From an uncultured Chloroflexota bacterium (GTDB lineage Bacteria; Chloroflexota; UBA11872), in NCBI GenBank assembly GCA_958296175.1, contig OY282448.1, positions 1,217,899-1,281,898 on the forward strand: a stretch of DNA of 64,000 nucleotides, written 5' to 3'. A program made the translations under genes and the position numbers. The notes beneath the pieces were generated by a model. It was not told the origin of the DNA, did no database searches, and saw only the letters and a program-made list of their open reading frames with translations. Positions 3,783 to 24,407 of the stretch are shown here, in pieces; the first letter of the stretch is position 1, and the number at the start of each line of letters is the position of its first letter.

Positions 3783-5327
3783 GTGAACGCGCCGGCGCGG
3801 CCGCGGCTCCGTCGGGCGGTGCTGGCGCAGCTCCCGCGCGCGGTGCGGACGGGGCTCCCACGGGCGGCCCGGGCGGCGCGGCGCGTCCACCCCGCGCCCG
3901 CGGCAGCCGCGGCGGCCCTCGCCATCCTGGCCGCGGCGCAGCCGCTGGACGCCGACCTGTGGGTGCATCTGAACAACGGACGCTTCATCGCCGCCGCCGG
4001 CCGGCTGCCCTATCCCGACCCGTTCAGTTTCAGCGCGGGCAGCGCGGTGTGGACGGTGCACGAGTGGCTGCCGGCCCTGGTGCTCTATGCGGTGGTCGGT
4101 CTGGGAGGCGTGGGACTTGCGGCGGTCGTCTTTGCCCTGATCTACGCCGCCGTCTGGCTGCTGCTGGAACGCGCCCTGGCCGCGCACGGCGTGGGTCCCT
4201 GGGCGCGCGCCGCCGCGATTGGGGCGGCCGCGCTGCCGCTGCTCCCGTTCGCGGGGCCGCGTCCGCTGGCCTTCGGCGTGCTGGCTGCCGCCGCGGCTGC
4301 CGCGCTGACCCTGGAGCACCGCCGCAGCGGCTCGCGGCTGATCTGGCTGACGCCCCTCGTGTTCTTGTACTGGGGCAACGTGCACGCCTCGTTTCCCATC
4401 GGGCTGGCCGTGCTGGGAACGGCGCTGGGCGAGGCGGTCTGGGCGCGCGCGCCGGTTCCGTTCGCGGGGGAGCGGCCGCGCACGCGCCTGGGCTGGACGG
4501 CGCTGGTTGCGGCGCTGTCGGCGGCGGCCGTGGCCGTGAATCCCTCGGGGCCGCGCTTGCTGGGGCAGCCGTTCTTTCAGTGGGGCGGCGAGTTTCGCAG
4601 GTTCAACAGCGACTGGCTGCCGCCCGCGGCGGGTTCGGACACGTGGTGGTCGTTCGCGGTCTTCATTGGCCTGGCGGCGCTGACGGCGCTGCTGGGCTGG
4701 CGGCGGCTGCGGCCGGCGGAGCTGGCGCTGCTGGTCGTTCTGATCGCCGCGGGGGTCAGCGCGCGCAAGGTCATGCCGTTTGCGGCGGTGGTTGCGCCGC
4801 TGCTGCTGGCCGGGCCGCTGCGCGGCGGCGGCGCGCCGCACTTGCGGCCGCCGGCCTGGCTGAGCCGCGCCGCCGCCGGTCTTGCGCTGGCCGCCGCGGT
4901 CGGCGCCGCCGCGGTGATGGCCCCGCGCAGTCTGGCGGGGCCGACCGCCGTGCCCATGCCGCACGCCGCGCGCAGCGTACTGACAGCCGCCGCGCCCGCG
5001 CGCGTGTTCAACACCTACCATTGGGGGGCCTACCTCACCTGGAGGCTCTGGCCCCGCACGCTCGTGTTCATCGACGGACGCTTCGACCTGTTCGTCCCCG
5101 GCCCGCTGGCGGACTATCTGACCGTGACAGGGCTGGACCCCGCCTGGCGCGAGACGCTGGCCCGCATCGACCCGGACGCGGTGCTGATCGAAACGGCGTC
5201 GCCGCTGGCGCAGCGGCTTGCCGAACCAGATTCCGGCTGGCGAGATGCCGGCGGCGACGCCGTCGCGCGGGTCTTCCTGCCCGCGCCGCCGAGTCCTGCG
5301 CCCTCCAAGAGCAAGGGCGGCGCGTGA
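3783..5327 (+). CDS. Polytopic membrane protein of unknown function
   Basis: 514 residues from a GTG start. An Arg/Ala-rich N-terminus is followed by many hydrophobic segments through about residue 385 and a C-terminal soluble part. Two regions look conserved: DADLWVHLNNGRFI with PDPFSFS and HEWLP near the first periplasmic loop, and FNTYHWGAYLTWRLWP with VFIDGRFDLF near the C-terminus. Similar loops occur in widespread GT-C-like membrane proteins without assigned activity; that comparison is from memory. The stop overlaps the start of the next gene (GTGA), so the two are probably translationally coupled. Function is not assigned. Confidence 0.7.
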   Translation: MNAPARPRLRRAVLAQLPRAVRTGLPRAARAARRVHPAPAAAAAALAILAAAQPLDADLWVHLNNGRFIAAAGRLPYPDPFSFSAGSAVWTVHEWLPALVLYAVVGLGGVGLAAVVFALIYAAVWLLLERALAAHGVGPWARAAAIGAAALPLLPFAGPRPLAFGVLAAAAAAALTLEHRRSGSRLIWLTPLVFLYWGNVHASFPIGLAVLGTALGEAVWARAPVPFAGERPRTRLGWTALVAALSAAAVAVNPSGPRLLGQPFFQWGGEFRRFNSDWLPPAAGSDTWWSFAVFIGLAALTALLGWRRLRPAELALLVVLIAAGVSARKVMPFAAVVAPLLLAGPLRGGGAPHLRPPAWLSRAAAGLALAAAVGAAAVMAPRSLAGPTAVPMPHAARSVLTAAAPARVFNTYHWGAYLTWRLWPRTLVFIDGRFDLFVPGPLADYLTVTGLDPAWRETLARIDPDAVLIETASPLAQRLAEPDSGWRDAGGDAVARVFLPAPPSPAPSKSKGGA

Positions 5328-20608: not shown

Positions 20609-20891
20609 GTCGAGTCAATCCCCACGTGTTGGCCCGTGCAGGCCGCCGTGCGCTTGGAAGCCTTGTCACGGTAGGCGCGGGAACTCTCCCTTGAGGGAGA
20701 GGGTAAAGAGGGGGCGGTGGGGGTTTGGGGGTGTGGGTGGTGGGTACACTTGCAGACTGCGGCCAGTGGTTGAAGCCTGTGTCTGACCAGCCTTGTTGCG
20801 CGCCCGCGGCGGCCCGCGGGTCGGGGGGCGTGCGCCAGGGCGATCTGGCCGGGCCTCCAGCGCTGCGCCAGGCCGAGGGTTCCGCCAGAGC

Positions 20892-21100
20892 GCCGTCGGC
20901 CCCGCGCGCGGCCGAGCGCTCCTCCTCGCACGTGGACGCCTCGGAGCCGCTGCCGTCAGCCCCGCGCGCGGCCGGGCGGCCGACGGCCATTACACTTGAC
21001 TCGAGCGTGAGAGGCCCAACCCCGCGCGCGGCTGAGGGGCCCTTACACGACCAGGCCAGGCAGCGCCGCCAACACCCGGCTCCGCGTGCGGCCGAGGGGC
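20892..21100. repeat. Four repeats with exact 60-bp period
   Basis: Copies of a roughly 28-nt unit start at 20892, 20952, 21012 and 21072. The core CCCCGCGCGCGGC is intact in the first three and changed to TCCGCGTGCGGC in the fourth; intervening segments of about 32 nt are unrelated. The layout is that of a small CRISPR array with a GC-rich palindromic repeat, directly upstream of the formylglycine-generating enzyme gene. Confidence 0.7.
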
Positions 21101-21129
21101 CGGGGAAGCGGCGCTCCGAACGGGCTGCG

Positions 21130-22011
21130 GTGCCTGGCCTGGGCGCGGTGCGGCTGCGCGGGGGGGAGTTTCGCATGGGGACCGACGATCGACAGGGGTT
21201 CCCGGCGGACGGCGAAGGGCCGGTGCGGGTGGTGCGCGTGGGGGGCTTTCGCATCGCCGCCGCGGCGGTGTCCAACGCGCAATTCGCCGCGTTCGTGGAC
21301 GCCGCGGGCTACCGAACCGAGGCCGAAGGCTTTGGCTGGAGCTATGTCTTTCACCTGCTGGCGCCGGACGAGATCGTGCGCCGCGTTCCGCAGCGGCCGC
21401 AGGGGACGCCCTGGTGGCTGCCGGTCAGCGGCGCCTGCTGGTCGGCGCCCGAAGGGCCGGGGTCGGACGTGGACGACCGCCTCGACCATCCCGTGGTGCA
21501 CGTCTCCTGGAACGACGCGCAGGCCTATTGCGCCTGGGCCGGCGCGCGGCTGCCAACCGAGGCGGAATGGGAATTTGCCGCGCGCGGCGGCCTGGATCAG
21601 CGGCGCTATCCCTGGGGCGACAAGCTGACGCCCAAGGGGGAGCACCGCTGCAACATCTGGCAAGGCGAGTTTCCGCGCCTCGACACTGGCGCCGACGGCT
21701 GGACCGGCACGGCGCCGGTGGACGCGTACCGGCCCAACGGCTACGGCCTGTACAACCTGGCCGGCAACGTGTGGGAATGGTGCGCCGACTGGTTCAGCGC
21801 CGCGCACCACCGCAGCGCCGGGACCGACAACCCGACGGGGCCGGCCCAGGGGCAGCGGCGCGTGCTGCGCGGCGGGTCGTATTTGTGTCACCGCTCCTAT
21901 TGCAACCGCTACCGCGCGGCGGCGCGCAGCTCCAACACGCCGGACAGCACGGCCGGCAACCTGGGGTTCCGCTGCGTACAGGCGGCTCCGCCGCCGGCCG
22001 CCCGGTCCTGA
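21130..22011 (+). CDS. Formylglycine-generating enzyme (SUMF1 family)
   Basis: Copper-dependent oxidase that converts the active-site Cys of sulfatases to formylglycine. From the GTG at 21130 the product is 293 residues. Family signatures are present in order: FRMGTDD, VSNAQFAAFV, EGFGWSYVF, HPVVHVSWNDAQAYCAWAG, RLPTEAEWEFAARGG, YPWGD and GLYNLAGNVWEWCADW. The active-site pair C253 and C258 in LCHRSYCNRYR marks a true enzyme rather than a catalytically silent domain. The frame stays open upstream through repeats, so 21130 is the likely start. The stop-codon segment is duplicated in tandem (21993-22031). No sulfatase gene lies in the window. Confidence 0.85.
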   Translation: MPGLGAVRLRGGEFRMGTDDRQGFPADGEGPVRVVRVGGFRIAAAAVSNAQFAAFVDAAGYRTEAEGFGWSYVFHLLAPDEIVRRVPQRPQGTPWWLPVSGACWSAPEGPGSDVDDRLDHPVVHVSWNDAQAYCAWAGARLPTEAEWEFAARGGLDQRRYPWGDKLTPKGEHRCNIWQGEFPRLDTGADGWTGTAPVDAYRPNGYGLYNLAGNVWEWCADWFSAAHHRSAGTDNPTGPAQGQRRVLRGGSYLCHRSYCNRYRAAARSSNTPDSTAGNLGFRCVQAAPPPAARS

Positions 22012-22116: not shown

Positions 22117-23067
22117 GTGAGCGGTCCGGCGATTCGGACCTGGGGCCTCACCAAGCATTACGGCTCGGTGGAGGCGCTGTGCGATCTCGATCTGGAGGTC
22201 GTGCGGGGCGAGGTCTTCGGGTTCCTGGGGCCGAACGGCGCCGGCAAGACCACGGCAATCCGACTGCTGTTTGGCCTGATGCGCCCCACGCGCGGGCGCG
22301 CCGAGGTGCTGGGGCGCGACGTGCACCGCGACGGACCGGCGGCGCGGCGCTCGATGAGCTTCATGCCCAGCGACAGCAGCTTGTACCCCTTCATGAAGGT
22401 GCGCCAATACCTGGAGGCGTTCGGACGCCTGGGCAGCGCCTCGCGCCGCCGCCAGCGCGACCTGATCGAACGGCTGGACCTGGACGACTCGCGCAAGATT
22501 AGCGACCTGTCCATGGGCAACCGCCAGAAGGTCGTGATCGTGCGCGCGCTGCAGGAGGACGTGCCGGTCTACGTCGTGGACGAGCCGACCCGCGGGCTCG
22601 ACCCGCTGGTGCAGCAGGAGTTTGGCGCGATCGTGCGCGAGATCAGAGACGACGGGCGCACGGTCTTCCTGTCCACGCATTTCCTGTCCGAGGCCGAGGC
22701 GCTGTGCGACCGCGTGGGCATCCTGCGCAGCGGACGGTTGATCCGCGTGGACGCGGTGGCCGACCTGGCCGCCGCGCGCGTGCGGCGGGTGACGGTCACG
22801 TTCGAGGGCGAGCCGCCCGCCGCGCTGGCGATTCCCGGCGTCGGCAACATCCAGCGCAGCGACGGCGCGGCGCGCTTCGAGGTGCGCGGCTCGATGGACC
22901 CGGTCATCAAGGCGCTGGCGCAGTTCGACGTGGCCGACCTGGAAACCGACGAGCCGAGCTTTGCGGAAGCGTTCCTGCGCCACTACGAACATGGCGGCGC
23001 GGATGGCGCGGACGGCGCGGACGGCGCGGCGCAGGCCGCCGCGCACGGCGAGGCGCGGGACGCATGA
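22117..23067 (+). CDS. ABC-2 type transporter ATP-binding protein
   Basis: 316 residues, energising the permease encoded by the next gene. Walker A is GPNGAGKTT, the Q-loop region is MPSDSSLYPFMKV, the signature is the variant LSMGNRQK, Walker B is YVVDEPTRGLDP and the H-loop lies in LSTHFLSEAEALCDRV. A C-terminal regulatory-like domain follows, ending in a GADGADGAD tail coded by a short DNA repeat. The GTG start at 22117 is the first available. The stop overlaps the permease ATG by four bases (ATGA). The substrate is unknown. Confidence 0.88.
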   Translation: MSGPAIRTWGLTKHYGSVEALCDLDLEVVRGEVFGFLGPNGAGKTTAIRLLFGLMRPTRGRAEVLGRDVHRDGPAARRSMSFMPSDSSLYPFMKVRQYLEAFGRLGSASRRRQRDLIERLDLDDSRKISDLSMGNRQKVVIVRALQEDVPVYVVDEPTRGLDPLVQQEFGAIVREIRDDGRTVFLSTHFLSEAEALCDRVGILRSGRLIRVDAVADLAAARVRRVTVTFEGEPPAALAIPGVGNIQRSDGAARFEVRGSMDPVIKALAQFDVADLETDEPSFAEAFLRHYEHGGADGADGADGAAQAAAHGEARDA

Positions 23068-23894
23068 CGCGCGGCGCGGTGCTGAGCCTGGAGCTGGTGC
23101 GTCTGACCCTGCGGACGCGGCGGCTGGCCACGTTCTGGTTTTCGATCGGCGTGGCGCTCTACGCGCTGCTCATCATGGGCCTGTGGCCGCTGTTCAAGGA
23201 CATCGACTGGCAGGCCATGGCGGAGGCCTTTGGCGGCACGCAGACCTTTGGCGGCGTGACTTCCTCCGCCGCCACGGCGCAGGAGAACGCGTTCTACCAG
23301 TACTGGAGTTCGCAGTACACGACCTGGGTTACGCTGGTGATGACCTATGTCGGCGTCTGGTTCGGCGCGGGGGTGATCGTGCGCGACTTCGGCGCCGGCA
23401 CGCTGGACGTGCTGTTGGCCGCGCCAATCAGCCGCACGCGGTTCCTGGCCGCGCGCGGCGCCGCGGTGGCCGCGGCCGCCCTGCTGGTGGCGGCGGCCTC
23501 CCTGCTGGGGGTGCTGGTGGGCGCGGCGGTCTGGATCACGGACGTGGCGCTGTCCCCGCGCGACCTGGCGCTCATCCACGTGCAGCTGCTGCTGTTCACG
23601 CTGGCCTTCGCCGGCGTGGGCGCGCTGCTGGGCGCGCTGATTCTGCAGCCCGGCCGCACCTACGGCATCGCCGCGGCGCTCGTGGTGCTGATGTTCGTGC
23701 TCACGATCGTGGCGGACGTGGCCTCCGCGGCCGAGTGGCTGGGCCGACTGAGCCTGTTCGGCTACTGGAACCCCATCGACCAGGCGGCGACGGGCGCGTT
23801 CGCCTGGCGCGACGCGCTGGTGCTGGGCGGGTCGGCGGTGGTGACGTTTGGCGCTGCGCTGGCCGTGTTCCGCCGCCGCGACCTGGCGGCCTGA
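23064..23894 (+). CDS. ABC-2 type transporter permease
   Basis: 276 residues with about six hydrophobic segments. A long extracytoplasmic loop (residues about 45-85) follows the first helix, and VRDFGAGTLDVLLAAPISRTRFL is the cytoplasmic coupling region typical of ABC-2 exporters. It is the membrane partner of the overlapping ATPase gene. The last codon is followed immediately by the ATG of the selenoprotein-like gene, so all three are likely in one transcript. Export of a lipid, drug or polymer is possible; nothing points to one substrate. Confidence 0.85.
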   Translation: MTRGAVLSLELVRLTLRTRRLATFWFSIGVALYALLIMGLWPLFKDIDWQAMAEAFGGTQTFGGVTSSAATAQENAFYQYWSSQYTTWVTLVMTYVGVWFGAGVIVRDFGAGTLDVLLAAPISRTRFLAARGAAVAAAALLVAAASLLGVLVGAAVWITDVALSPRDLALIHVQLLLFTLAFAGVGALLGALILQPGRTYGIAAALVVLMFVLTIVADVASAAEWLGRLSLFGYWNPIDQAATGAFAWRDALVLGGSAVVTFGAALAVFRRRDLAA

Positions 23895-24407
23895 ATGCCG
23901 CGGGCGCAGGGGTCGACGACGCTGCAGCCGGGCGACCGCGCGCCGCGGGCCGCGCTGCCCACGGCGGCCGACCCCGGCCAGACCCTCGACATTCCCGCCG
24001 CCGGCGCCTGGCAGCTGCTGCTGTTCCTGCGGCATCCCTGGTGACTGAACTGCCAGGGCTATCTGGCGCGGCTCGCGGGCGAGCTGGAGGAATGGGAGCG
24101 GCGGGGCGTGCGCACGGCCGGCGTGTTTCCGCAGTCGCCGGGCCGCGTGCAGGGTCTGGCGGACGACCTGGACCTGCCCTTTCCGCTGCTGATAGACGAG
24201 GATCGAGCGGTCATCCGCGCGTACGGCGTCTACGTGCGCGTCAACTTCGAGTCCTGGAACATGGCGCGCCCCAGCGTCTTCCTGATCGACCCGCAGGGCC
24301 GCGTGCAATTCCTGCACGTGGGCTCGCACCAACGCGACTGGCCCGACAGCGAGGCGCTGTGGGCGGTGGTGGACGGGGACGACGCGGCGGGCAGCGCTTC
24401 TGCGTGA
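23895..24407 (+). CDS. Peroxiredoxin-like selenoprotein (in-frame TGA at codon 50)
   Basis: Thioredoxin-fold AhpC/TSA-like protein of 170 residues if TGA at 24042-24044 is read as selenocysteine. The N-terminus has the family motif LQPGDRAPRAALPT. Then LLLFLRHPW is followed by TGA and LNCQGYLARL, which places Sec at the redox position of a U-x-x-C motif (C53). After the TGA the frame continues with strong similarity in style to the fold: PFPLLIDEDRAVIRAYGVY and ARPSVFLIDPQGRVQFLHVG. A stem-loop resembling a bacterial SECIS lies at 24069-24086. The ATG follows the permease stop directly. A conventional caller would split this into a 49-residue stub and a downstream ORF. A nonsense mutation is the alternative reading. 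Confidence 0.7.
24069..24086 (+). promoter_or_regulatory. Candidate bacterial SECIS stem-loop
   Basis: Bases 24069-24075 (CGGCUCG) pair with 24080-24086 (CGAGCUG) through seven pairs, one of them G-U, closing a CGGG loop at 24076-24079. The loop begins 31 nt after the UGA and has a G among its first two bases, as bacterial SECIS elements do. The stem lies inside the coding frame. Confidence 0.5.

What the first reader, a model, noticed from the sequence alone, without database searches (positions are those of the whole stretch)
23895..24407. Peroxiredoxin-like gene read through an in-frame TGA: probable selenoprotein with a U-x-x-C motif
Seen: codon 50 of an otherwise intact thioredoxin-fold frame is TGA (24042-24044), placed as LRHPW-TGA-LNC, so the stop replaces the first Cys of a Cys-x-x-Cys-type redox motif. 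The coding character is strong on both sides of it. A 7-bp stem with a CGGG loop lies 31 nt downstream (24069-24086). Known: bacterial Sec insertion needs a SECIS within about 16-37 nt of the UGA with a G early in the loop, and AhpC/TSA-like selenoproteins exist. Inference: this is Sec, and the protein is a thiol/selenol peroxidase-like enzyme co-transcribed with an ABC-2 exporter. Standard gene calling would truncate it.
Basis: partly seen in the sequence, partly recalled or inferred. Interest (0 to 1): 0.86.

Follow-up and report, generated by a model that had tools for sequence, protein, structure and literature searches.

The report
Selenocysteine-containing peroxiredoxin-like redox protein
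A stop codon inside this Chloroflexota bacterial gene is almost certainly read as the selenium amino acid selenocysteine, giving a peroxiredoxin-like redox enzyme of an already known kind, so the finding is correct but only moderately surprising.

Summary
The finding is right. The frame 23895-24407 is an AhpC/TSA (PF00578) protein with an in-frame TGA as codon 50. The 3.0-Mb genome encodes SelA, SelB, SelD and a tRNA-Sec with anticodon UCA. All close relatives that carry the gene keep TGA at that column; more distant homologues have TGA or Cys there. Beyond the TGA the protein still evolves under purifying selection. Synonymous change almost vanishes in exactly two adjacent hairpins after the TGA (pS 0.19 and 0.08, against 0.58-0.63 elsewhere). 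The second hairpin (24069-24086, loop CGGG, 31 nt from the UGA) fits the published bacterial SECIS model; the first (24051-24068) does not, yet is conserved and covaries. The protein fits a catalogued family, the "Prx-like thiol:disulfide oxidoreductase, UxxC". It is not a canonical peroxiredoxin: Arg and Sec replace the Pro and Thr of PxxxTxxC. The ABC ATPase/ABC-2 permease just upstream is a conserved neighbour across two genera. Verdict: a new member of a known kind, with two modest novelties: a conserved gene cluster with an ABC-2 exporter, and a two-hairpin recoding element.

The parts
23895..24407 (+). Prx-like (AhpC-TSA, PF00578) selenoprotein gene, 170 aa with Sec50, ends at TGA 24405-24407
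   Evidence: Pfam AhpC-TSA 74.8 bits over residues 12-138, across the TGA; N-terminus MPR(A/P)(E/Q)GS(E/T)T conserved in relatives from ATG, GTG or TTG; AlphaFold pLDDT 89.4, peroxiredoxin fold
24042..24044 (+). Sec codon UGA (residue 50), first position of the UxxC motif (U50-L-N-C53); context UGAC
   Evidence: TGA at this column in all genus/family/order relatives carrying the gene; TGC in distant CxxC homologues
24069..24086 (+). SECIS hairpin (helix 2): 7-bp stem, loop CGGG at 24076-24079, 31 nt from UGA
   Evidence: 100% of cells paired in 24 sequences; loop G36 and G37 invariant while loop edges vary CGGG/AGGT; synonymous rate 0.078; meets bSECIS model
24051..24068 (+). Accessory hairpin (helix 1): 7-bp stem, loop GCUA at 24058-24061, 13 nt from UGA
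   Evidence: 98.2% of cells paired, two pairs with changes on both sides (GC/UA and GC/AU/GU); synonymous rate 0.189; loop too close to UGA for the bSECIS model
22117..23067 (+). ABC transporter ATP-binding protein (DrrA-like), conserved neighbour
   Evidence: PF00005; 70-78% identical neighbour in genus relatives, 59-67% in L057 and sister-genus loci
23067..23894 (+). ABC-2 type permease; its TGA stop abuts the ATG of the selenoprotein gene
   Evidence: PF12679; conserved upstream neighbour at 46-60% identity

Best explanation
The gene encodes a Prx-like redox enzyme, probably cytosolic, whose catalytic nucleophile is selenocysteine. UGA 24042-24044 is decoded by tRNA-Sec(UCA), delivered by SelB that is tethered to the SECIS hairpin 24069-24086; the hairpin just 5' of it (24051-24068) is a conserved accessory part of the recoding element. 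Sec50 attacks an oxidised substrate (a disulfide or a peroxide) and Cys53 resolves the selenium intermediate to an intramolecular Se-S bond, which a thioredoxin-type reductant reopens. It is probably translated together with the upstream ABC ATPase/ABC-2 permease. Shown: gene, TGA conservation, Sec machinery in the genome, RNA-level constraint, neighbour linkage; predicted: fold. Inferred: Sec insertion itself, which hairpin SelB binds, the catalytic cycle, the substrate, co-transcription.
For: Sec machinery in the same genome: SelA 447.8 bits, SelB 326 bits over its cut-off, SelD 371 bits with its own in-frame TGA, tRNA-Sec anticodon TCA. TGA conserved at the column in all genus/family/order relatives with the gene. 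dN/dS about 0.3 downstream of the TGA against the orthologue group. Synonymous rate: linker 0.61, helix 1 0.19, helix 2 0.08, next six codons 0.87, rest 0.58-0.63. Covariation reached by 0/500 shuffles. 46 of 49 TGA homologues meet the bSECIS criteria, against 2 of 8 Cys homologues and 16% of random TGAs in the window. Peroxiredoxin fold; Arg125 kept.
Against: No protein-level evidence of Sec. Energy of the single sequence is ordinary for this G+C content. Relatives are related by descent, so conservation counts are not independent. The conserved residues do not decide between peroxidase and disulfide reductase. One TGA-carrying relative (G252, 89% complete) shows no selB over the cut-off, though it has selA.
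Confidence: 0.95

Rival explanations
1. Sequencing or assembly error, or a recent nonsense mutation (pseudogene): the TGA is really a Cys/Trp codon or the gene is dead.
For: Only the general possibility; single assemblies do contain such errors.
Against: The same TGA stands in independent assemblies of a dozen genus relatives, the sister genus and another family; purifying selection continues downstream.
Confidence: 0.01
2. UGA is read as another amino acid: generic read-through, or a changed code with UGA as Trp or Gly.
For: UGAC is a comparatively leaky stop context (own knowledge).
Against: TGA serves as the stop of this gene and of the upstream permease; a Sec-specific tRNA with anticodon UCA and SelA/B/D are present; clear homologues show Cys, Thr or Ser at the column, never Trp, and Gly only in one weak match without the motif (L100).
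Confidence: 0.02
3. The stop is genuine and the downstream part is a separate gene with its own start (GTG 24108), so that two short proteins are made.
For: Mechanical ORF calling gives a 99-aa ORF from 24108.
Against: One Pfam domain spans the TGA; neither fragment alone makes the complete fold; the RNA after the TGA is constrained at synonymous sites.
Confidence: 0.02
4. Still a selenoprotein, but working as a true peroxidase rather than as a UxxC thiol:disulfide oxidoreductase.
For: Closest folds are Bcp4, AhpC and AhpE; Cys53 aligns with the peroxidatic Cys of PrxQ and Arg125 with its catalytic Arg.
Against: The PxxxTxxC motif is lost (Arg46 and Sec50 in place of Pro and Thr); ResA-type thiol:disulfide oxidoreductases are nearly as close by sequence.
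Confidence: 0.4

Closest known systems
Prx-like thiol:disulfide oxidoreductase, UxxC/UxxU, PF00578 (tables of PMC9312934 and PMC13188914; 'Prx-like protein', UXXC, in PMC1088965)
   Same: AhpC-TSA domain, UxxC motif, Sec in the thioredoxin-like position, bacterial SECIS downstream
   Different: This clade (RH-x-W-U-x-x-C) sits next to a conserved ABC-2 exporter and carries an extra hairpin between UGA and SECIS; not compared residue by residue with the listed representative WP_010940744.1
NCBIfam SelL_rel_redox (NF040769)
   Same: Best NCBIfam hit; holds related UxxC redox proteins such as that of L040
   Different: 55.4 bits against a cut-off of 120: not a member
Bcp/PrxQ and AhpE peroxiredoxins (e.g. 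PDB 3hjp, 2cx3, 4x1u)
   Same: Same fold, TM-score up to 0.89 on the target; Cys53 and Arg125 align with catalytic residues
   Different: PxxxTxxC motif not kept; Sec in place of Thr
ResA / StoA thiol:disulfide oxidoreductases
   Same: CxxC at the same place; sequence similarity E about 1e-16 with a profile
   Different: Sec instead of the first Cys; ResA-type proteins are extracytoplasmic (own knowledge), this one has no evident signal

Membership tests
Bacterial selenoprotein | In-frame UGA conserved in homologues, with Cys as alternative | tested here: met
Bacterial selenoprotein | SelA, SelB, SelD and tRNA-Sec in the genome | tested here: met
Bacterial selenoprotein | bSECIS: loop 3-9 nt, stem 4-16 bp, G in first two loop positions, 16-37 nt from UGA, energy at most -7.5 kcal/mol | tested here: met
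   Helix 2: 7 bp, loop CGGG, 31 nt, -9.3 kcal/mol (model from PMC13188914)
Bacterial selenoprotein | Sec detected in the protein | not testable with these tools
   needs mass spectrometry or selenium labelling
Prx-like thiol:disulfide oxidoreductase (UxxC) | PF00578 domain plus UxxC motif | tested here: met
Prx-like thiol:disulfide oxidoreductase (UxxC) | Thiol:disulfide oxidoreductase activity | not testable with these tools
   needs an enzyme assay
Canonical peroxiredoxin | PxxxT/SxxC active-site motif | tested here: not met
   R46...U50xxC53 in its place
Canonical peroxiredoxin | Catalytic Arg in the later strand | tested here: met
   Arg125 (ARPS) lies where PrxQ homologues have (K/E/Q)R(S/T/A)TF in the alignment
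SelL-related redox protein NF040769 | Score above the curated cut-off of 120 | tested here: not met
   55.4 bits

The most novel reading that the evidence does not exclude
The recoding signal of this clade is a composite of two adjacent hairpins, in which a UGA-proximal hairpin outside the bSECIS spacing range is a functional part (for example by pausing the ribosome or hindering release), and the selenoprotein is a dedicated redox partner of the neighbouring ABC-2 exporter.
Probability: 0.35. Interest if true: 0.55.

Novelty: new member of a known kind. Interest (0 to 1): 0.38.

Why it matters
It shows a Sec-decoding trait, with several probable selenoproteins, in an uncultured Chloroflexota lineage, and corrects a gene that standard calling would truncate. 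The per-codon synonymous dip marks the SECIS without any structural model and reveals a second constrained hairpin, which makes the limits of bacterial SECIS elements testable. The conserved exporter linkage gives a concrete lead to the substrate of a selenoprotein family whose physiological role is not known.

Tried and rejected
Single-sequence folding energy as evidence: not informative in this G+C-rich DNA. Rfam gave only a tRNA in the window at gathering thresholds. Plasmid records and the phage-protein library gave nothing. A composition-based scan for other read-through TGAs in the window flagged only 28899, the ordinary end of an ABC exporter, and missed the real one, so it is not sensitive and is not used. 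Sequencing error, altered genetic code and split gene were rejected on the relatives. The second paralogue group in genus relatives (L105-L114) has other neighbours (alcohol dehydrogenase, methyltransferase in L105), so the exporter linkage is not shared by both paralogues. No residue-level comparison with the family's listed representative was possible: the one scan of genome contigs was used.

Full report
Observation. The frame 23895-24407 is open except for TGA at 24042-24044, codon 50, in LRHPW-U-LNC. Its ATG follows directly on the TGA stop of the ABC-2 permease.

What the protein is. Translated through the TGA it matches Pfam AhpC-TSA with 74.8 bits over residues 12-138, i.e. on both sides of the TGA. 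The structure model (pLDDT 89.4, pTM 0.86) has a peroxiredoxin fold, closest to Bcp4, AhpC and AhpE. By sequence the nearest solved chains are BCP/PrxQ and ResA. In the alignment Cys53 takes the place of the PrxQ peroxidatic Cys and the TGA codon that of the Thr in PxxxTxxC, while the Pro is Arg46; the catalytic Arg is kept as Arg125. UxxC therefore corresponds to the thioredoxin-type CxxC.

Is the TGA Sec? The genome G000 (3,002,743 bases, one contig) holds selA (447.8 bits), selB (326 bits, over its cut-off), selD (371 bits, itself with an in-frame TGA at HGAGUASK) and tRNA-Sec with anticodon TCA. In all genus, family and order relatives in which the gene was found, the same column is TGA; distant phylum homologues have TGA, or TGC/TGT in CxxC proteins, or Ser/Thr in others. 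Of the Cys- or Ser-type genomes checked, three (G099, G262, G185) show neither selA nor selB; others with Cys/Ser forms do have selB, so the correlation is one-sided. G252 has the TGA and selA but no selB over the cut-off; it is 89% complete.

Translation beyond the TGA. Against the orthologue group, dN is 0.27-0.31 and dS 0.77-1.2 downstream of the TGA, the pattern of a maintained protein.

The RNA element. Across five groups of relatives the synonymous difference per site is 0.61 in the two codons after the TGA, 0.189 in helix 1, 0.078 in helix 2, 0.866 in the next six codons, 0.585 upstream and 0.626 in the rest downstream; the nine lowest 6-codon windows of the gene all lie here. In 24 sequences 99.1% of paired cells are standard pairs, and the covariation score exceeds all 500 shuffles and all slid registers. 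Helix 1 carries the covariation; helix 2 is nearly invariant, with G36 and G37 of its loop invariant while the loop edges change (CGGG to AGGU). The published bSECIS model asks for a 3-9 nt loop, 4-16 bp, G in the first two loop positions, 16-37 nt from UGA, and at most -7.5 kcal/mol (PMC13188914). Helix 2 meets all of these; helix 1 is too near (13 nt). 46 of 49 TGA homologues, including two more TGA genes of this genome, have such a hairpin, against 2 of 8 Cys homologues and 16% of random TGAs in the window; most loops share N-G-(G/U). Most homologues outside the family have a single hairpin about 25 nt from the UGA, so the extra hairpin is a feature of this clade. That helix 2 rather than helix 1 is what SelB binds is inferred from spacing and loop, not shown.

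Surroundings. The ABC ATPase and ABC-2 permease directly upstream are found upstream of the orthologues in the genus (70-78% and 58-60% identity), of L057 (67% and 52%), and in the sister genus (about 59% and 46-49%). The second paralogue in genus relatives has other neighbours. A functional tie to the exporter is thus plausible but unproven.

Known or new. A PF00578 'Prx-like thiol:disulfide oxidoreductase' with UxxC is listed among prokaryotic selenoproteins (PMC9312934; PMC13188914), and a Prx-like UXXC family was reported from the Sargasso Sea (PMC1088965). The present protein meets the sequence features of that family. It fails the canonical peroxiredoxin motif and the cut-off of NF040769. 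It is a new member of a known kind; the two-hairpin element and the exporter linkage are modest additions, and my few searches of the held library turned up no paper describing either, which is weak evidence of absence.

Confidence: Sec at residue 50, 0.95; disulfide reductase rather than peroxidase, about 0.6.

Noticed in passing
G000:C1:1857178-1857594 (L098) and G000:C1:533852-534238 (L101), outside the window: Two further Prx-like/thioredoxin-like genes of the same genome have in-frame TGA at the UxxC position (FWUSTC, GHWUSHC) with bSECIS-like hairpins: probable further selenoproteins.
   Followed up: partly
G000:C1:1456865-1457791 (L009), outside the window: selD itself has an in-frame TGA near its N-terminus (HGAGUASK), followed by a hairpin GGCGCA-CGUGU-UGCGCC: a probable Sec-containing selenophosphate synthetase.
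   Followed up: partly
L105-L114, L027: Most genus relatives carry a second paralogue of the selenoprotein, also with TGA and the same two hairpins but without the ABC neighbours; the window's genome has only the one close copy.
   Followed up: partly
window 20725-22011 (+): Sulfatase-modifying-factor-like ORF; best NCBIfam match is selenoneine synthase SenA at 134 bits, far below its cut-off of 420.
   Followed up: no
window 4212-4298 (+): ARAGORN calls a tRNA-Gly(ccc) of 87 nt that Rfam's tRNA model does not report at its gathering score; possibly spurious.
   Followed up: no
L029: A MAG titled Alkalihalobacillus macyae carries a 36-37% identical UxxC homologue with a bSECIS-like hairpin, and another TGA-bearing thioredoxin-like frame (TYTUGLC) on the opposite strand.
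   Followed up: no
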